From the IMG/VR virus record IMGVR_UViG_3300047508_000070, positions 1-33,086 of that record: a stretch of DNA of 33,086 nucleotides; one strand, written 5' to 3'. The DNA comes from a virus. The first letter of the stretch is position 1, and each line of letters starts with the position of its first letter. The notes beneath the pieces are model-generated. The model was not told the origin of the DNA. It did no database searches and was given only the letters and a program-made list of their open reading frames with translations. The position numbers were made by a program, and so were the translations under genes. Shown one piece after another: positions 25,532 to 32,253 of this stretch.

Positions 25532-26410
25532 ATGACCATGCACGTTGTGCTGGGCGATGGTGAGATGACCCGCAAGGAACTCACCGAAACCCTTTCGGAC
25601 ATCTGGAAGGCAGACGAAGAGGCAGGGCAGACCTTCTGGTTCCTGATCCAGGGCAAGAGCGAGCCGAACGACACCGACAAGAACCTGGTGTCGTGGCTGG
25701 AGCGGAACGAGGTGTACTACGAAATCATCACCGATGACAAGAACACGGTGGATGCGATCTACAGCCAGCCGCAGGAGGTTCACGAGGCCAAGCGCCTCGG
25801 GCTGAAGGTCGTCAACTTGCTCAAGGGCAAGCCGGAAGACGAAGAGTCGGCGGAACTGCTGGCGCTGTTCGCGTCCGACGATCCCGGCGCACCGGAAGAC
25901 CAGTGGCTCAACGACGTGTGCCAAGCGGTGTTCGACGCCGGGTTCCCGATCCGTGCCCTCAACGACGGACTGGTCGATGTGGACATGGGAGAGCCGGAGC
26001 CGGAGCCTGAGGCCGAGCCGGAGGAACCGGCTGCGAAGACACCGGCCAAGAAGGCTCCCGCCAAGAAGGCCGCGGCGCAGCCGAAGACCGCTGATACCAA
26101 GGTATCGGAAGAAGATGACGCGCCCTCCGCCAAGCAGCAGGCCGCCTACACCCGTGACCAGCTTGAAGACATGGAGCTTGACCAGCTAAAGGCCATCGCC
26201 GGTGAGCTTGGTATCTCTCTTCCGGCACGCACACGGATGACCACCTACGTCGAGGCCATCCTCGGTGAGGACAAGAAGACGCCGGTTGCCGAGGTCAGCG
26301 CGCCAGTGGGGGATGCTGGTGGTACCCTCAATGGTTCCCTCGATATCGAGGCCCTGGCCGACGCCATCGTCCTCAATGTCATCAAGCGACTGGAGGCCGC
26401 ACTTTCATGA
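25532..26410 (+). CDS. Protein with Lys/Ala/Pro linker and SAP-like end, function unknown
   Basis: A 292-residue protein with GAGGAG (25518-25523) upstream; a second ATG lies two codons in. Residues 1-145 form an alpha/beta domain with an acidic character (TFWFLIQGKSEPNDTDKNLV, EVYYEIITDD). Then comes an acidic run (EPEPEPEAEPEE) followed by a histone-like basic repeat (AKTPAKKAPAKKAAAQPK). After that a segment YTRDQLEDMELDQLKAIAGE and ISLPARTRMTTYVEAIL looks like a SAP- or Rho-N-like helix-extended-helix DNA/RNA-binding motif. The alternation of acidic and basic linkers suggests nucleic-acid or protein bridging, but there is no close family match I can name. It overlaps the VWA gene by 4 bases. 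Confidence 0.5.
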   Translation: MTMHVVLGDGEMTRKELTETLSDIWKADEEAGQTFWFLIQGKSEPNDTDKNLVSWLERNEVYYEIITDDKNTVDAIYSQPQEVHEAKRLGLKVVNLLKGKPEDEESAELLALFASDDPGAPEDQWLNDVCQAVFDAGFPIRALNDGLVDVDMGEPEPEPEAEPEEPAAKTPAKKAPAKKAAAQPKTADTKVSEEDDAPSAKQQAAYTRDQLEDMELDQLKAIAGELGISLPARTRMTTYVEAILGEDKKTPVAEVSAPVGDAGGTLNGSLDIEALADAIVLNVIKRLEAALS

Positions 26411-27111
26411 CCAAAGCCCACTACTCACACATCACCCTCGTCTGCGACCGTTCCGGCTCGATGCACGCGATCTGCACCGACGCTCAGGGAGCCGTCAACT
26501 CCTTCATCACCAAGGAGAAGGAGGTTCCCGGCGAAGCCTCTCTGTTGCTCGTGGAGTTCGACGCCCAGATCGGCCACGCCGTCAACGAAACTCCCGAGTG
26601 GTACAACGTCGTCTTCGACGGCAACCTTGCCGATGCTCCGTCCTACAAGCTCCGTCCGCGTGGTAACACAGCGCTGTACGACGCAGTGGGCCGCGCGATC
26701 ACCGAGACGGGATCGAAGCTGGAGAAGATGCCCGAAGACCAGCGTCCCGAGCACGTCTTCTTCGTCGTCCAAACGGACGGCTTGGAGAACTCCAGCCGCG
26801 ACTTCACAGTGGAGTCGATCAGGAAGATGGTCCTGACACAGACCAACGAGTTCCGCTGGGATTTCGTCTTCTTGGGCACCGGGCCGGAGACGTGGGGCCA
26901 AGGCGCTCAGATGGGTTTCGGTAACGTCACTCGCTCGGCAGCCGGAGGCCAGGCGTTCGCCGCCACCTACGATCACACTCACCAGGTGATGTCCAACGTC
27001 CGCACCGGCAGGGCCAAGAGCATGGCCGGGAGCAACGCAGCAGTTGACAGCGCGGGCAATGTCGTGCAAGATGCCCCAGACTCAGCGGACCACGACCACG
27101 ACGTGACGTGA
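26407..27111 (+). CDS. VWA-domain protein
   Basis: A 234-residue protein, most of it a von Willebrand factor A domain. The metal site is complete: D14-R-S16-G-S18 (DxSxS), T88 in GNTALYDA, and D124 in TDGLEN. The strand order (HITLVCDRSGSMH, SLLLVEFDAQIG, HVFFVVQTDGLE, FRWDFVFLGTG) is standard for this fold. A Gly/His/Asp-rich C-terminal tail (MAGSNAAVDSAGNVV, DHDHDVT) follows. VWA domains bind protein partners through a divalent metal. It lies just before the Ro/Y RNA locus, whose Ro protein also carries a VWA domain, so a link is possible but not shown. Two terminators separate them. Confidence 0.85.
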   Translation: MTKAHYSHITLVCDRSGSMHAICTDAQGAVNSFITKEKEVPGEASLLLVEFDAQIGHAVNETPEWYNVVFDGNLADAPSYKLRPRGNTALYDAVGRAITETGSKLEKMPEDQRPEHVFFVVQTDGLENSSRDFTVESIRKMVLTQTNEFRWDFVFLGTGPETWGQGAQMGFGNVTRSAAGGQAFAATYDHTHQVMSNVRTGRAKSMAGSNAAVDSAGNVVQDAPDSADHDHDVT

Positions 27112-27135
27112 GCACTCCGGTCTGAGGGTCATGGA

Positions 27136-27163
27136 AGGGCAGCCTGGAGGGGCAGGCTGCCCT
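27136..27163 (+). terminator. Intrinsic terminator hairpin after VWA gene
   Basis: AGGGCAGCCT (27136-27145) pairs perfectly with AGGCTGCCCT (27154-27163) over 10 bp with an 8-base loop; CTTC follows. This is the first of two hairpins that end the structural transcription unit. Confidence 0.85.
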
Positions 27164-27189
27164 CTTCATGGGGACAACAAACCGGAGGT

Positions 27190-27219
27190 AAGAGGGCGGC
27201 TGGACGGGGCCGCCCTCTT
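27190..27219 (+). terminator. Second terminator hairpin before Y RNA promoter
   Basis: AAGAGGGCGGC (27190-27200) pairs perfectly with GCCGCCCTCTT (27209-27219) over 11 bp with an 8-base loop. Together with the preceding hairpin it insulates the Y RNA/Ro locus from upstream transcription. Confidence 0.85.
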
Positions 27220-27279
27220 CGCGTCTGGCCCCATGTACCCCCATTTACCTGCAGTGCATCACCCCAGGTCATAAATGCG

Positions 27280-27308
27280 TTGCAAAGTGTTTCGTTCCGT
27301 CGTAGCTT
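27280..27308 (+). promoter_or_regulatory. Promoter of Y RNA-Ro locus
   Basis: TTGCAA (27280-27285), a 17-base spacer, and TAGCTT (27303-27308) form a SigA-like promoter. Start of transcription about 7 bases on would be near 27314-27316, which is where the first unit's stem GGTCCTGGG begins. The fit of promoter and RNA end supports both calls. The two terminators lie just upstream. No other promoter is obvious within the array. Confidence 0.7.
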
Positions 27309-27312
27309 GATC

Positions 27313-27384
27313 GGTCCTGGGCCGGAGCCAGTCGGTTATCTTCGTGAAAAGAAAACCCCGGTTGGCACCCACTCGCCTAGGACT
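27313..27384 (+). ncRNA. Y RNA-like unit 1 (short class)
   Basis: It starts at the expected transcription start. GTCCTGGG (27314-27321) pairs with CCTAGGAC (27376-27383) over 8 bp with one G-T pair, and G27313-T27384 extends it. The conserved block GGGCCGGA...GTCGGTTATC runs 27319-27340; the C at 27323 lies opposite C and stays unpaired. The inner sequence (GTGAAAAGAAAACCCCGG) has little structure and no T arm. So this looks like a minimal Y RNA with a Ro-binding stem and a loop but no tRNA domain. Confidence 0.65.
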
Positions 27385-27412
27385 TTCCTTGACAACACAA
27401 CGATCTCGCTGA

Positions 27413-27547
27413 GGGCCGAAGTCGGTCGGTTATCGCATCAGGAGCGGGTGGTCGCAGGTTCGAGTCCTGCCGTCTCCACATCGTGGGGACGTAGCTCAGT
27501 TGGCAGAGCGCCTAAAACACTCGGTTGACGCCCCTCGCCTTCAGCAC
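27413..27547 (+). ncRNA. Y RNA-like unit 2 with circularly permuted tRNA domain
   Basis: Closing helix: GCCGAAG (27415-27421) with CTTCAGC (27539-27545), with C27417 opposite A27543 and all other positions paired. The block ends in TCGGTTATC (27426-27434). Inside is a T arm (GCAGG 27454-27458, loop TTCGAGT, CCTGC 27466-27470). Then an acceptor-like stem (CGTCTCCAC 27471-27479 with GTGGGGACG 27483-27491, nine pairs with one G-T) is closed by loop ATC. A D arm follows (GCTC 27494-27497, loop AGTTGGCA, GAGC 27506-27509). The order T-acceptor-D is the reverse of a normal tRNA gene, as if a tRNA had been joined at its acceptor end and opened in the anticodon arm. This is the plan expected for YrlA-type Y RNAs. 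Confidence 0.8.
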
Positions 27548-27560
27548 TATCACAACCCTC

Positions 27561-27645
27561 GGGCCGGATGGTGTCGGTTATCCTTGACTTCCAATCAAAC
27601 CAACTCCGGTACCTACTCGCTCGTCCGAGGGACACAACTCAGCCA
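27561..27645 (+). ncRNA. Y RNA-like unit 3 (short class)
   Basis: Closing helix of 14 positions: strand 27562-27575 (GGCCGGATGGTGTC) with 27631-27644 (GACACAACTCAGCC). Only C27565-A27641, A27568-C27638 and G27570-A27636 fail to pair. The conserved block GGGCCGGA...TCGGTTATC spans 27561-27582. Inside is a small hairpin TTGA-CTTCCAA-TCAA (27584-27598) with a 7-base loop like an anticodon arm (loop bases 3-5 read TCC). There is no T or D arm. It may keep a relic of an anticodon arm, or the hairpin is chance. Confidence 0.7.
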
Positions 27646-27646
27646 A

Positions 27647-27783
27647 GGGCCGGAGAGGATCGGTTATCTCACCAGCCCCCGCAAGGGAGCGACAACCCGC
27701 CAGAACGAGAATCCTGGCAGCGGCGCAAGCCGTCAACTCGGTGCTCACTTCTCGCCCTTGGTAACACAACATAACTCTCCAGC
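27647..27783 (+). ncRNA. Y RNA-like unit 4
   Basis: Closing helix: GCCGGAGAG (27649-27657) with CTCTCCAGC (27775-27783), eight pairs with C27651 opposite A27781. The conserved block GGGCCGGA...TCGGTTATC spans 27647-27668. The interior folds into three short hairpins: GCCCCC-GCAA-GGGAGC (27675-27690, one mismatch), GCCAG-10 bases-CTGGC (27699-27718) and CGGC-GCAA-GCCG (27721-27732). Two have GNRA loops. The second loop (AACGAGAATC) is only loosely T-loop-like. The last five bases, CCAGC (27779-27783), are also the 5' edge of unit 5's best stem, so the two units cannot both form their longest stems at once. Confidence 0.65.
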
Positions 27784-27908
27784 GGGCCGACGTGAGTCGG
27801 TTATCCCAATTGGTATTACAGGTTCGATTCCTGTCCGTCAGACCGCTTCGGCCAGATGACGGAAGCTCATTTCGGTGAGCGCTCCGGTTCGCACACCTCG
27901 CCCGCTGG
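27779..27908 (+). ncRNA. Y RNA-like unit 5 with circularly permuted tRNA domain
   Basis: Closing helix: CCAGCGGGC (27779-27787) with GCCCGCTGG (27900-27908), nine perfect pairs. Then C27788 bulges, and GA/TC and GTG/CAC continue with one C-C mismatch. A single bulged C here mirrors the bulged C in Ro60-binding sites of vertebrate Y RNAs. The block GGGCCGA...TCGGTTATC spans 27784-27805. The interior has a T arm (ACAGG 27818-27822, loop TTCGATT, CCTGT 27830-27834). Next is an acceptor-like stem (CCGTCA 27835-27840 with TGACGG 27857-27862), then a D-like arm (GCTCA 27865-27869, loop TTTCGG, TGAGC 27876-27880). The order is again T-acceptor-D, with a sequence different from unit 2. Confidence 0.8.
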
Positions 27909-27927
27909 AACACAATCTGGCCCCTCC

Positions 27928-28032
27928 GGGCCGGAGCACATCGGTTATCCGCAGTGGCCTAGACGACAGTGCTCCCGCAAGGGAGAGTGAGGGTTTGATC
28001 CCCTCCCGCCGCCAACCAATCCGGTGTGCAGC
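27928..28032 (+). ncRNA. Y RNA-like unit 6 with T-arm-containing tRNA-like part
   Basis: The conserved block GGGCCGGA...TCGGTTATC spans 27928-27949. GCACATCGG (27936-27944) pairs with CCGGTGTGC (28021-28029) over nine positions with one T-G pair. GC (27930-27931) may pair with GC (28031-28032) outside an internal loop. The interior has a hairpin CTCCC-GCAA-GGGAG (27972-27985) and a T arm (GAGGG 27989-27993, loop TTTGATC, CCCTC 28001-28005). After that comes GCCGCCAACCA, like a tRNA 3' end. Here the T arm comes last, so this unit keeps the normal tRNA order but has lost its 5' acceptor strand. It ends about ten bases before the Ro ribosome binding site. Confidence 0.65.
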
Positions 28033-28051
28033 TACTCGACTGGAGGAACAC

Positions 28052-29629
28052 ATGACGGACCCATTGAAGACCATTTCTACGCGGCAGACGCCGCAGGACC
28101 AGCCGATTCCCGGCACGGTCCCCAACTCCGCTGGCGGCTATTCGTTCGCCGTTGACAAGTGGGGTCGGCTCAACCGCTTCCTGATCCTTGGTACCCAGGG
28201 CGGCAGCTACTACGCATCCGAGCGCAAGCTGACCAAGGAGAACGCCGACGTGCTGTTCGCCTGCATCGCAGAGGACGGCCCGCGCGTCGTGGACACCATC
28301 GTTGACATCTCCGTCAACGGCCGCAACCCCAAGCAGGCCCCTGTCCTGTTCGCTCTGGCCGTGTGCTCGGGCGCAACGGACCAGGCGACCCGTTCGGCAG
28401 CGCTTGCTGCCATCCCCAAGGTGTGCCGCACCGGCACCATGCTCTTCCAGTTCGTCGGCTACGCCGAGCAGTTCCGTGGCTGGGGCCGTGGTCTGCGCGA
28501 GGCCGTTGCCAAGTGGTACACGGAGCGCTCTGTCTCGTCTCTGGCGATGCAGGTCGCCAAGTACCAGCAGCGCGAGGGTTGGGGCCACCGTGACCTCCTG
28601 CGCCTGTCCAAGCCCCGACCGGCGCGCGGTGAGTCGCACGATCAGGTGTTGAAGTGGGCTGTCGGCAAGGACCCCGAGCCGACCTTCCCCTTCCTGGCCG
28701 CTGTCGAAGACATCAAGACGGCACCGCTGAACCACGCTGTCACGCTGGTAACTCAGCACAAGCTGCCGTGGGAGGTCGTCCCCGACCACCTCATGAACGA
28801 GCCGAAGATGCTCGCCGCGCTCGTGGAGCCGATGGGCATCACCGCACTGGTGCGCCAGTTGAGCCGCCTCACGGCGACCGGCACGATCAAGTCGCTCGGT
28901 GGCCAGATCAACCTCGACAAGGTGCTCGACAAGCTGACCGACGAGCAGTTGGTCAAGGCCTCGCGCATCCACCCGCTGACCGTCCTCGTTGCCCTCAAGG
29001 CCTACGAGAAGGGCAAGGGTCGGCACCTGGACTGGAGTCCGATTCCGCGGGTTGTAGACGCCCTCAACGACACCTTCAAGCTGGCCTTCGGCAACGTCGT
29101 GCCCTCCAACAAGCGCACGCTCATCGCCCTCGATACCTCGGCGTCGATGACGTGGAGCAACATCGCCGGTACCGAACTGACGCCTAGCGTCGGTTCGATC
29201 GCCATGGCGCTGGTCACTGCGGTCACCGAGCCGGAGTATCACATCATGGCGTTCAGCCACCAGTTGGTGAACATCCCTGGCATCACCGCCAAGAGTTCGC
29301 TGCAGGCGGCCATGGCTGCAACTGCCAAGGTCGGTGGAGGCGGCACCGACTGCTCGCTGCCGATGACCACGGCGCTCAAGGCCGGTTGGGACGTGGAGCA
29401 CTTCGTCGTCTACACCGACAACGAGACGTGGGCCGGTCGTCAGCACCCGGTGCAGGCGCTCAAGGCTTACCGCGACAAGCGCGGTATCCCTGCTCGCCTG
29501 ACGGTGGTCGGCATGGTCTCCAACGGCTTCTCGATTGCCGACCCCAACGACGCGGGCATGCTCGATGTCGTCGGCTTCGACACTGCAGCGCCGCAGTTGA
29601 TCGCTGACTTCGGTGGAGGCCGCATCTGA
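28052..29629 (+). CDS. Ro60/Rsr-like TROVE protein
   Basis: A 525-residue full-length Ro protein. The ATG at 28052 has GGAGG (28042-28046) upstream; the frame is open further back through the RNA array but without a good start. It begins NSAGGYSFAVDKWGRLNRFLILGT, the conserved start of the TROVE HEAT-repeat ring (GYxFxVDxWxRLxRFLIxG). Then YYASERKLTKENADVL and GWGHRDLLRLSKPRP, both very typical of Ro60. The C-terminal VWA domain keeps a full metal site: D361-T-S363-A-S365, T432 and D456. Ro rings bind the stem of Y RNAs and misfolded RNA ends; in Deinococcus a Y RNA links Ro to PNPase. The six RNA units directly upstream on the same strand are its likely partners. Confidence 0.92.
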   Translation: MTDPLKTISTRQTPQDQPIPGTVPNSAGGYSFAVDKWGRLNRFLILGTQGGSYYASERKLTKENADVLFACIAEDGPRVVDTIVDISVNGRNPKQAPVLFALAVCSGATDQATRSAALAAIPKVCRTGTMLFQFVGYAEQFRGWGRGLREAVAKWYTERSVSSLAMQVAKYQQREGWGHRDLLRLSKPRPARGESHDQVLKWAVGKDPEPTFPFLAAVEDIKTAPLNHAVTLVTQHKLPWEVVPDHLMNEPKMLAALVEPMGITALVRQLSRLTATGTIKSLGGQINLDKVLDKLTDEQLVKASRIHPLTVLVALKAYEKGKGRHLDWSPIPRVVDALNDTFKLAFGNVVPSNKRTLIALDTSASMTWSNIAGTELTPSVGSIAMALVTAVTEPEYHIMAFSHQLVNIPGITAKSSLQAAMAATAKVGGGGTDCSLPMTTALKAGWDVEHFVVYTDNETWAGRQHPVQALKAYRDKRGIPARLTVVGMVSNGFSIADPNDAGMLDVVGFDTAAPQLIADFGGGRI

Positions 29630-30639: not shown

Positions 30640-32253
30640 TCAGTGCAAGATGGTGTCAGCCGTTCGCAGCGCCAGAGCCGCCAACGTCAGTGTCGGGTTG
30701 GCTGTGCCCTCGGTGGGGAACACGCTCGACCCGGCGATGAACATGTTGGGCACGTCGTGAGAACGACAGTCGCGGTCCACTACTGATGTGTGTGGATCGT
30801 TGCCCATGTTGGTGGTGCCGATGATGTGTCCGGCTCCGAACAGGAATGGGACGTGATGCCGGTCGGTGGCATTCATCGCCTCAAACAGCCGCTCATGAAG
30901 CGCCTCTGCTTCGGCAGCACCATCGTTGACGTAGCGGCCGATGGTGAAGCTGATCCGCGGTCGAGGGATGCCGATGGCATCGACGTTGGCGAAGTCGGGC
31001 ACGATCCGGTTCTCGGGGTTGGGCAACTGCTCGGTCAGTGAGCCGAAGCGGAACTCACGAGTGACGTGATCGCGCCAGCGATCGCGCAGGGCGTTGCCGC
31101 CCTCCCGAAGCTGGACGAACGTCCCGGCACCATCGGGCTGGGCAGTGAACTCGAATGTCGGATCACCGATCGGGAACTTCCAACCGTCGTTGCCGATTTC
31201 GACACGGAACGCCGAGTGGTCGCCGCGCGTTGCTGCCTGGCGAGTGCTCTCGATTCCTGCTGTGCTCAGCGGGCCACGCTGACCGAACACCGGCTCGTCG
31301 CTGAGCGCGTAGCTCAGCTTGATCGGGTGATCCATCAGGTTGCGGCCCACCATGTCCGACGAGTTGCCGACACCGGCACCACCGTTGGCCATCAGCATGA
31401 TCTTCGGTGTCTCGATGGCATTGGCTGCCAGTATCACAATGTCGGCCAGGACTGTCACGTTGCTCTTGTCGGGCTTGCGGTAGACGACACCCGTGGCCCT
31501 GCCGTTGCTGACGAGGATGTCGTGAACGACGGCGTTGGGGATGATCTTGGCACCATGCTCGCGAGCCAGATCGAGATGGATCAGGGCGTCGTACTTGGCA
31601 CCGATCGGACACACCGGGATGCAGTTGGAGTTGCCCACGCAGTGGTGGCGATCGTTGTACGTCTCGGAGTTGCGGGCCTGTGGCGTCCCCAAGACCTCAA
31701 GGCCGAGCTTGGCTGCTGCCTTGGCGATGATGCCGTCGAGGTAGCTGGTGGGGATTTCCTCCATCGGGAACGGTGCGGACCGCGGTGAGCCTTGGTCAAC
31801 GGCGCTGTTGCCAGCAACACCGATGGCGACCTCGGCGCGGACGTACCACGGCTCCAACTCGTTGTAGGTGATCGGCCAATCGACGCCGACGCCGAACAGG
31901 CTGTGCAGGTTGAAGTCGGACGGCAGCAGGCGTGGGCAAGAGCCGAGCCAGTGCCACGTCGTGCCGCCGACGATGCGCTCGTAGGTCGAGCCGAACGGAT
32001 CGGGGCCGTTCTGGATGAAGTAGCCGGTGCCGGGGACACCGATCTCCAACACGCTCGGGCGTGGTGCCCAGGGCGTGTTCGGATAGGGCGACTCGGGGAC
32101 CTTGGCGGTTGCCGCACGGAAGGTCGCCACGGCGACATCTCGGTCCTGCGGAGGGCCAGCCTCCAAGATGGTCACGTTCATGCCAGCCTTGGCCAGCTTC
32201 CAGCCGACCAGTGCTCCGGCAACGCCGGAGCCAACGATTACTGCGTTCGTCAT
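30640..32253 (-). CDS. GMC-family FAD dehydrogenase (gluconate/sorbitol-dehydrogenase type large subunit)
   Basis: A 537-residue flavoprotein on the minus strand. The N-terminus has the FAD-binding motif AVIVGSGVAGALVGWKLAKA, then ILEAGPP. Near the C-terminus H-I-I-G-T-T-N-M-G and F-P-T-E-G-T-A-N-P-T-L-T carry the GMC catalytic His and Asn, and a final GMC flavin loop (NMFIAGSSVFP). A cluster H-H-C205-V-G-N-S-N-C211-I-P-V-C215-P-I-G-A resembles the 3Fe-4S-binding segment of three-subunit FAD sugar dehydrogenases; the first Cys is shifted by one, so cluster binding is uncertain. The partner small subunit is encoded just upstream and overlaps by ATGA. The substrate cannot be read. It could oxidise a sugar or alcohol and feed electrons to the host chain. 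Confidence 0.85.
   Translation of the reverse strand: MTNAVIVGSGVAGALVGWKLAKAGMNVTILEAGPPQDRDVAVATFRAATAKVPESPYPNTPWAPRPSVLEIGVPGTGYFIQNGPDPFGSTYERIVGGTTWHWLGSCPRLLPSDFNLHSLFGVGVDWPITYNELEPWYVRAEVAIGVAGNSAVDQGSPRSAPFPMEEIPTSYLDGIIAKAAAKLGLEVLGTPQARNSETYNDRHHCVGNSNCIPVCPIGAKYDALIHLDLAREHGAKIIPNAVVHDILVSNGRATGVVYRKPDKSNVTVLADIVILAANAIETPKIMLMANGGAGVGNSSDMVGRNLMDHPIKLSYALSDEPVFGQRGPLSTAGIESTRQAATRGDHSAFRVEIGNDGWKFPIGDPTFEFTAQPDGAGTFVQLREGGNALRDRWRDHVTREFRFGSLTEQLPNPENRIVPDFANVDAIGIPRPRISFTIGRYVNDGAAEAEALHERLFEAMNATDRHHVPFLFGAGHIIGTTNMGNDPHTSVVDRDCRSHDVPNMFIAGSSVFPTEGTANPTLTLAALALRTADTILH

What the first reader, a model, noticed from the sequence alone, without database searches (positions are those of the whole stretch)
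27454..27509. Circularly permuted tRNA inside unit 2
A T arm (27454-27470) is followed by an acceptor-type stem of nine pairs (27471-27479 with 27483-27491) closed by a three-base loop ATC, then a D arm (27494-27509). Order T-acceptor-D is what results if the ends of a tRNA are joined and it is opened in the anticodon arm. The arms fit tRNA consensus well (TTCGAGT loop, AGCTCAGTTGGCAGAGC D arm). It would mimic a tRNA elbow but cannot be charged, since the acceptor end is closed.
Basis: seen in the sequence. Interest (0 to 1): 0.8.

Follow-up and report, generated by a model that had tools for sequence, protein, structure and literature searches.

The report
Phage Y RNA mimicking permuted tRNA
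A phage carries six small RNAs next to the gene for their likely partner protein (a Ro60 relative), and one of them contains a complete but rearranged transfer RNA; this kind of RNA (Y RNA) is already known in bacteria and phages, though the retained anticodon arm looks like an unusual variant.

Summary
T arm 27454-27470, a nine-pair closed acceptor stem 27471-27479/27483-27491 and D arm 27494-27509 are present with canonical pairs throughout. They form the tRNA-like module of a Y RNA. Unit 2 (27408-27545) is one of six tandem units sharing the Ro60-binding motif GGGCCG..CGGTTATC, and the array ends at the gene for a phage Ro60 (TROVE + vWA, 28052-29629). A circularly permuted tRNA module is the published architecture of bacterial YrlA (PDB 6CU1), so the kind is known.

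(1) An anticodon-arm-like hairpin (27434-27446) precedes the T arm, so unit 2 holds all four tRNA arms, opened between D and anticodon arms. 36 of 62 viral Ro-motif/T-arm units have such a hairpin against 3.5 in shuffles, but folding of unit 2 itself does not favour it. (2) Relatives carry the reciprocal topology: a normal-order tRNA with the Ro stem inserted between D and anticodon arms (28 descriptor hits in 176 loci, none on reverse strands). (3) In this clade the last Y RNA's stem contains the Ro60 gene's Shine-Dalgarno.

Likely role: Ro60-bound adaptor, by analogy with YrlA; main rival: anticodon-nuclease decoy. The primary Y RNA papers could not be read.

The parts
27313..27383 (+). Y RNA unit 1: Ro stem with a short loop, no tRNA-like module
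   Evidence: Ro motif copy D1; Rfam nematode sbRNA ceN72-3_ceN74-2 36.3 bits, gathering 38; MFE -31, z -2.72
27408..27545 (+). Y RNA unit 2, the unit that holds the finding
   Evidence: Ro motif copy D1; YrlA RF02553 38.2 bits at 27446-27515, gathering 69
27408..27429 (+). Ro60-binding stem of unit 2, 5' strand (27408-27416 and 27421-27429)
   Evidence: nine plus nine canonical or G-U pairs with the 3' strand
27434..27446 (+). anticodon-arm-like hairpin of unit 2: CGC, loop ATCAGGA (U33 = 27438, anticodon position 27439-27441 = CAG), GCG
   Evidence: 36 of 62 distinct viral Ro+T units have such a hairpin against 3.5 in shuffled segments; in the ensemble of this one sequence its probability is only 0.01
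27447..27453 (+). variable-region equivalent
   Evidence: 6 or 7 nt between hairpin and T stem in 31 of 36 hairpin-bearing units
27454..27470 (+). T arm, loop TTCGAGT
27471..27491 (+). acceptor stem, nine pairs, closed by ATC (27480-27482)
   Evidence: acceptor covariation over 32 sequences
27492..27509 (+). U8-A9 equivalent (27492-27493) and D arm (27494-27509)
27521..27545 (+). Ro60-binding stem of unit 2, 3' strand (27521-27529 and 27537-27545)
27555..27631 (+). Y RNA unit 3: Ro stem with a short loop
   Evidence: ceN72-3_ceN74-2 30.5 bits; MFE -28, z -2.06
27642..27762 (+). Y RNA unit 4: Ro stem enclosing three hairpins that are not tRNA-like
   Evidence: MFE -52.6, z -3.29; inner part 63 of 71 aligned columns identical to L003
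27778..27909 (+). Y RNA unit 5: second permuted module (T 27818-27834, acceptor closed by a longer loop, D arm to 27880); no anticodon arm detected
   Evidence: YrlA 26 bits, below gathering
27923..28046 (+). Y RNA unit 6: T arm near its 3' end, apparently a degenerate tRNA-like module in normal order; its 3' strand 28038-28046 contains the Shine-Dalgarno GGAGG of the Ro60 gene
   Evidence: homologous unit in L018 is called tRNA-Tyr by ARAGORN; in the window itself only a chance-level tRNA-Sec match, 11.9 bits
28052..29629 (+). Ro60/Rsr orthologue (TROVE + Ro60 vWA), 525 aa
   Evidence: Pfam TROVE 9.7e-37 and vWA_Ro60 1.6e-58; profile matches solved Rsr 2nvo (2.2e-171) and Ro60 1yvp (9.2e-169)

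Best explanation
Unit 2 is a phage-encoded Y RNA, a small RNA bound by the phage's own Ro60-like ring protein encoded directly downstream. Its 5' and 3' ends pair to form the bipartite Ro60-binding stem. Between them lies a whole tRNA in circularly permuted order (anticodon-arm-like hairpin, variable region, T arm, acceptor stem closed by a small loop, D arm), so that the T and D arms can meet as in a tRNA elbow. It sits in a six-member array that gives one Ro60 several interchangeable modules: short stems (units 1, 3), permuted tRNA modules (2, 5), a conserved three-hairpin module (4) and a degenerate module with a T arm (6). Most likely the tRNA-like module works as in YrlA: it is docked on the Ro60 ring, is matured or modified by tRNA enzymes, and gates the ring or tethers a partner such as PNPase so that structured RNA is degraded during infection. 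Shown here by sequence: array, motif, tRNA arms, covariation, Ro60 gene. Inferred: transcription, processing into single RNAs, Ro60 binding, the partner.
For: Six copies of the Ro-binding strand. Weak but coherent Rfam hits to YrlA and to nematode Y-RNA homologues on units 1, 2, 3, 5 and 6; in the nearest relative L003, unit 1 passes the ceN72-3_ceN74-2 gathering score (41 against 38). TROVE/Ro60 vWA gene 5 bases after unit 6. Similar arrays: 47 of 78 viral loci with 1.2 kb upstream have at least one Ro motif there, 13 have four to six, against 14 of 78 with one or two on the reverse strand. Acceptor pairing at least 6/7 in 42 of 59 non-redundant Ro+T+D units (21 of 26 viral, 21 of 33 bacterial) against 6.3% of 3,404 cross-locus pairs. 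Covariation score 0.705 against 0.204 in shuffles and at most 0.185 in slid versions; 7 of 7 acceptor pairs with changes on both sides (32 of 59 rows, chosen by eye). L003 unit 2 folds by MFE into the full fold with Ro stem, anticodon arm, T, acceptor and D. Published YrlA: D, T and acceptor arms, Rsr binding, PNPase tethering, TruB and DusA substrate (review PMC8394870, passages read); circularly permuted relative to tRNA (PMC11472068, passages read); Y RNAs in mycobacteriophages (stated in PMC12282133, passages read).
Against: No transcript or binding data. Unit 2 scores below the YrlA gathering score (38.2 against 69). The MFE of full-length unit 2 (-58.4) is 5.3 kcal/mol better than the proposed fold (-53.1); the inner Ro helix and the anticodon arm have about 1% probability there, and truncated unit 2 folds no better than shuffles (z 0.21 and -0.31). 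The window's Ro60 and that of L003 have Lys where 12 of 14 aligned sequences have the His that aligns with residue 187 of the solved 1yvp sequence (that H187 matters for Y RNA binding is recalled, not looked up). 31 of 78 viral loci show no Ro motif upstream with this pattern.
Confidence: 0.85

Rival explanations
1. The same Y RNA acts as a decoy for host anticodon nucleases (VapC-, PrrC- or colicin-like enzymes): it presents tRNA elbows and anticodon-like loops that cannot be translated or missed, and Ro60 stabilises or sequesters it.
For: An anticodon-like loop with U33, purine 37 (33 of 36) and A38 (32 of 36) and many different anticodon triplets is retained in 36 of 62 viral units, although tethering by the elbow alone would not need it. 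Phages are thought to use tRNAs against such enzymes (PMC10264068 and PMC11555353, abstracts read). YrlA was suggested as a competitive inhibitor of an anticodon nuclease (PMC7790460, passages read).
Against: 26 of 62 viral units lack the hairpin by this test, among them unit 5. It occurs in bacteria too (31 of 90 units), so it is not a phage-only device. In unit 2 the hairpin is not favoured thermodynamically. In Salmonella, YrlA was not a substrate of the nuclease (PMC7790460).
Confidence: 0.25
2. Unit 2 is a permuted tRNA gene of the algal and archaeal type, whose transcript is circularised and then cut by RNase P and tRNase Z to give a working tRNA.
For: The order (3' half before 5' half), U8-A9, A73 and all arms are present; RNase P and tRNase Z act on the acceptor loop in algal permuted tRNAs (PMC3978253, passages read). 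The reciprocal open-acceptor form exists in relatives.
Against: The joint is not a bulge-helix-bulge motif (4-bp helix between 3-nt bulges): by inspection it is two nine-pair helices around an uneven internal loop, matching the Ro60-binding stem and repeated in five neighbours that mostly have no complete tRNA. No tRNA is found by ARAGORN or Rfam.
Confidence: 0.04
3. The array is mainly a regulatory leader of the Ro60 mRNA: unit 6 hides the Shine-Dalgarno, so that Ro60 binding to its Y RNA, or excision of unit 6, shuts off its own synthesis.
For: In 6 of 6 loci of the window's clade (window, L003, L018, L019, L020, L023) the last Ro stem's outer 3' strand (8 of 9 pairs) contains the GGAGG before the start codon.
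Against: The scripted test over 37 viral loci flagged only window, L018, L023 and L049 (the last probably by chance) and left 33 unflagged, L003, L019 and L020 among them because their last motif deviates; in the rest the Shine-Dalgarno lies outside the stem. It explains unit 6, not units 1 to 5 or their tRNA modules.
Confidence: 0.2
4. Remnant of two neighbouring ordinary tRNA genes whose halves happen to be adjacent.
For: Phage genomes carry tandem tRNA genes, and such junctions do give T-then-D neighbours (52 of 90 T/D neighbours pair in fewer than 6 of 7 acceptor positions).
Against: No tRNA gene in the window; the acceptor halves are complementary and covary in homologues; Ro stems flank the module.
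Confidence: 0.02

Closest known systems
YrlA, bacterial Y RNA (Rfam RF02553; Salmonella structure PDB 6CU1)
   Same: Ro-binding stem made by the paired ends; T arm, closed acceptor hairpin and D arm in that order; gene beside a Ro60 orthologue; circularly permuted relative to tRNA (PMC11472068, PMC8394870, passages read).
   Different: Unit 2 has an additional anticodon-arm-like hairpin between the Ro stem and the T arm, which the part of RF02553 shown lacks; score below gathering; six tandem units; phage.
Deinococcus radiodurans Y RNA (Rfam RF01053) with Rsr (PDB 2nvo)
   Same: Ro stem, T-arm-like hairpin, Rsr orthologue; closest Rfam match of the last unit of L003 (26.5 bits, gathering 80).
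   Different: No match above E 10 in the window's own region to this family; module order differs from unit 2.
Nematode stem-bulge RNAs ceN72-3_ceN74-2 (Rfam RF01656), homologues of animal Y RNAs
   Same: Match units 1, 3, 5 and 6 by the Ro stem; L003 unit 1 passes gathering.
   Different: No tRNA module; eukaryotic.
Circularly permuted tRNA genes of algae and archaea (PMC3978253)
   Same: 3' half encoded before 5' half, acceptor ends joined by a loop.
   Different: Those carry a bulge-helix-bulge joint and mature to ordinary tRNAs; here a Ro60-binding stem occupies the joint.
tmRNA (RF00023) and permuted tmRNA (RF04321)
   Same: tRNA-like T arm and acceptor; weak cmscan hits at 27412-27481 (16.8 bits) and 27454-27493 (24.1 bits).
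   Different: Both below gathering (47); no open acceptor and no tag reading frame sought or seen; ARAGORN finds no tmRNA.

Membership tests
Ro60-associated Y RNA (broad class) | Ro60-binding stem with conserved GG(U/G)CCGA..GGUUAUC strand | tested here: met
   six copies; 18 canonical or G-U pairs in unit 2
Ro60-associated Y RNA (broad class) | encoded next to a Ro60 orthologue | tested here: met
   TROVE + Ro60 vWA gene at 28052-29629
Ro60-associated Y RNA (broad class) | bound by Ro60 in the cell | not testable with these tools
   needs pull-down or gel shift
YrlA, Rfam RF02553 | T arm, closed acceptor hairpin and D arm in permuted order inside the Ro stem | tested here: met
YrlA, Rfam RF02553 | score at or above the curated gathering score (69) | tested here: not met
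   38.2 bits (unit 2) and 26 bits (unit 5); so it is not filed as an RF02553 member, only as YrlA-like
YrlA, Rfam RF02553 | tRNA-type modification (TruB, DusA) and PNPase tethering | not testable with these tools
   needs mass spectrometry and pull-down
Ordinary tRNA | recognised by ARAGORN or Rfam RF00005 with open acceptor | tested here: not met
   no hit in the window
Algal/archaeal permuted tRNA gene | bulge-helix-bulge motif at the joint | tested here: not met
   by inspection of the one stem: two nine-pair helices with an uneven internal loop
tmRNA | tmRNA match above gathering or by ARAGORN | tested here: not met
Rsr/Ro60 protein | TROVE domain plus MIDAS-bearing vWA domain | tested here: met
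   both Pfam domains over cut-off; MIDAS DTSASM, TD and D residues in register

The most novel reading that the evidence does not exclude
Many prokaryotic and phage Y RNAs are complete tRNAs with a Ro60-binding stem inserted between the D arm and the anticodon arm (a five-way junction), and nature uses both circular permutants: one opened at the Ro stem (unit 2 here, YrlA-like, acceptor closed) and one opened at the acceptor (a normal-order tRNA, sometimes with an encoded CCA, that could be matured and perhaps charged while held by Ro60). Tandem copies of either form contain the other across their junction, which would explain how the permuted tRNA arose. In phages, arrays of such RNAs with varied anticodon-like loops would serve as Ro60-held tRNA decoys or adaptors.
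Probability: 0.35. Interest if true: 0.75.

Novelty: new variant of a known kind. Interest (0 to 1): 0.5.

Why it matters
The permuted tRNA itself is the known YrlA design, here found in an uncultivated actinophage-like virus with an unusually large set of Y RNAs. What would matter is the variant: if Y RNAs keep an anticodon arm, and if the reciprocal normal-order tRNA/Y hybrids are real molecules, then tRNAs and Y RNAs are linked by a simple circular permutation, the origin of permuted tRNA mimics becomes testable, and phage Ro60 arrays become candidates for controlling host tRNA-cutting defences or RNA decay. The hybrids would also be missed or mislabelled by tRNA finders, as an annotated phage pseudogene suggests (Trina).

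Tried and rejected
Ordinary tRNA, tmRNA and chance were tested and rejected. An 'anticodon arm is a phage invention' idea was rejected: the same descriptor finds it in 31 of 90 bacterial units. Shine-Dalgarno sequestration as a general rule was rejected: it is confined to the window's clade. A promoter: the scan found none in 27050-28100; a TTGCAA-17-TAGCTT pair at 27280-27308, read by eye and partly conserved in L003, is too weak to claim. A full-genome view was not possible: the window is the whole record G000, 33,086 bases. A single-sequence scan of viral contigs gave only one relative, so an alignment was used (best 80 of 446 kept).

Row choices: the covariation alignment A2 holds 32 of the 59 non-redundant units, chosen by eye. 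Left out were two viral ones whose D arm looked wrongly assigned (L049, L079) and 25 bacterial ones (some with a doubtful D arm, some of plain YrlA type, some for brevity). The unselected counts over all 59 are. Of the 28 normal-order hits, L101 is a crossing from a neighbouring ordinary tRNA (Rfam tRNA at 2341-2414), and L080, L099, L108 and the first L160 hit have long gaps and are less certain.

Failed or limited steps: unit 2 was first folded with its 3' strand cut off and later in full, without a shuffle z-score for the full length. One search crashed and was redone. The primary papers (Chen 2014, Wang 2018, Sim and Wolin 2018, Sim 2020) are not held, so whether they already describe anticodon arms or normal-order hybrids was not checked. 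Paper searches and the passages read showed no such description.

Full report
What is there. The 56 bases fold that way by minimum free energy (-25.2 kcal/mol, z -3.07, 2 of 200 shuffles as low), with no non-canonical pair. ARAGORN and Rfam at gathering scores find nothing in the window.

Surroundings. The region 27313-28046 holds six copies of a strand GGGCCG(A/G)....CGGTTATC, the strand by which Y RNAs bind Ro60 (recalled; it is also the strand that the nematode Y-RNA-homologue family RF01656 matches here). A permissive Rfam search gives YrlA (38.2 bits on unit 2, 26 on unit 5; gathering 69) and RF01656 on units 1, 3, 5 and 6 (36.3, 30.5, 27.2 and 23.1 bits; gathering 38). Five bases after the last unit starts a 525-aa protein with TROVE and Ro60-vWA domains. 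The profile of it and 13 relatives matches the solved Rsr of Deinococcus (2nvo) and Ro60 (1yvp) over nearly the full length. The window is a fragmentary IMG/VR virus record with a major head protein and a tail sheath; the nearest sheath proteins among named phages are 35% identical, from Streptomyces phages. Ro60 homologues occur in 349 of 50,697 phage records, mostly Mycobacterium, Streptomyces and Gordonia phages.

Unit 2 in full. Outer Ro helix 27408-27416/27537-27545 and inner helix 27421-27429/27521-27529 enclose, in order, an anticodon-arm-like hairpin (27434-27446, loop AUCAGGA), seven variable bases, the T arm, the closed acceptor, UA, and the D arm. The order of a tRNA is therefore complete but opened between D arm and anticodon arm, with the ends extended into the Ro stem. 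The acceptor shows G3:U70 and A73, as in tRNA-Ala (that these are alanine identity elements is recalled); L018 has the same acceptor features, L003 does not.

Is it real? I fetched 14 named phage loci, 81 IMG/VR loci and 80 genome loci around Ro60 genes. (a) Permuted T-acceptor-D sites: 38 on the Ro strand of 96 viral loci, 0 on the reverse strand, 0 in one shuffle. (b) Without requiring acceptor pairing, 38 of 90 neighbouring T/D arms in these loci pair at 6 or more of 7 positions against 3.8% of cross-locus pairs; among 59 non-redundant units that have a Ro motif, 42 do against 6.3%. (c) In an alignment of 32 of those 59, chosen by eye, all 7 acceptor pairs have compensatory changes and 95% of cells are paired; the covariation score for the whole structure is 0.705 against 0.204 shuffled and at most 0.185 slid. 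RNAalifold on the same alignment predicts T, acceptor and D helices but not the anticodon arm.

Anticodon arm. Of 62 distinct viral Ro-motif/T-arm units, 36 contain a three-pair hairpin with a seven-base loop and U33 at the right distance from the T arm; letter-shuffled segments give 3.5 on average, at most 9 in 500 trials. Position 37 is a purine in 33 and position 38 is A in 32 of the 36 (features not required by the test, though used to choose between registers), and the anticodon triplets are diverse. The same test gives 31 of 90 in bacterial and other genome loci. Against this, the full-length MFE of the window's unit 2 lacks this hairpin and the inner Ro helix (probabilities about 0.01; proposed fold -53.1, MFE -58.4), the MAFFT alignment pairs only 64.8% of its cells, and units such as the window's unit 5 lack it. 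The nearest relative, L003, does fold into the complete scheme by MFE; L018 folds a hairpin at the same place in a shifted register; L076 does not fold as proposed. The part of the YrlA model printed has T, acceptor and D hairpins only.

The reciprocal form. A second descriptor finds tRNAs in normal order (acceptor, D arm, T arm, acceptor) whose D-T gap contains the Ro strands in the order 3' strand, loop, 5' strand: 28 distinct hits in 176 loci (8 viral, 20 from genome records), none on reverse strands. At least one (L101) is a crossing from a neighbouring tRNA, and four have long gaps. Two hits in Minicystis rosea score 51.3 and 47.5 bits with Rfam's tRNA model (gathering 29), with the Ro stem as an insertion. 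Element order around the circle is the same as in unit 2; only the opening differs. Tandem copies of one form contain the other across their junction (L063 shows neighbouring tRNA-order copies), a plausible origin for the permutation. This last step is inference.

How it most likely works. By analogy with YrlA (review PMC8394870, passages read), phage Ro60 binds the stem and the tRNA-like module gates the ring or tethers a partner such as PNPase. Several units per locus are common: 13 of 78 viral loci with enough upstream sequence have four to six Ro motifs. In the window's clade (6 of 6 loci) the last unit's stem includes the Shine-Dalgarno of the Ro60 gene, which suggests that Ro60 or Y RNA excision feeds back on Ro60 synthesis; elsewhere this is not seen. 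A decoy role against anticodon nucleases is the main functional rival (PMC10264068 and PMC11555353, abstracts; PMC7790460, passages).

Known or new. A circularly permuted tRNA module in a Y RNA is known (PMC11472068, passages), and Y RNAs have been reported in mycobacteriophages (as stated in PMC12282133, passages). So the finding as written is not new in kind. The anticodon-arm-bearing five-way form and the normal-order hybrids were not described in anything I could read, but the primary papers are not held, so novelty beyond 'variant' is open.

Noticed in passing
window 26407-27111 +: Small protein just upstream of the Y RNA array (phrog_7371, unknown function, no Pfam match); its start encodes LVCDRSGSMHA, a MIDAS-like DxSxS motif, so it may be a second vWA protein beside Ro60.
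   Followed up: no
window 27642-27762: Unit 4 encloses three non-tRNA hairpins whose sequence is 63 of 71 aligned columns identical to L003, more conserved than the tRNA module of unit 2 (54 of 96): a different and strongly conserved effector module.
   Followed up: partly
window, between units (27384-27407, 27546-27554, 27632-27641, 27763-27777, 27910-27922, 28047-28051): Unpaired linkers carry ACACAA or TCACAA-like sequence after nearly every unit, also in L003; possibly a processing signal.
   Followed up: no
window 27923-28046 and L018 2893-2966: The last unit of the clade holds a tRNA-like module in normal order; in L018 ARAGORN even calls it tRNA-Tyr, so it may be mislabelled as a tRNA in annotations.
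   Followed up: partly
L012 2643-2851 (Rhodococcus phage Trina): An annotated 'tRNA-OTHER' pseudogene directly upstream of Ro60 coincides with Y RNA sequence containing a permuted module (2824-2877).
   Followed up: partly
window Ro60 residue 187: Lys in the window and L003 where 12 of 14 aligned homologues have the His aligned with residue 187 of 1yvp.
   Followed up: partly
window 30640-32253 -: A GMC-type FAD oxidoreductase gene (Pfam) on the opposite strand of a phage contig, an unusual cargo.
   Followed up: no
L018 2572-2790: One Ro motif unit is followed by a long structured insertion (CGCAAGGGAAGG and similar) that matches no other unit seen; possibly another RNA gene.
   Followed up: no
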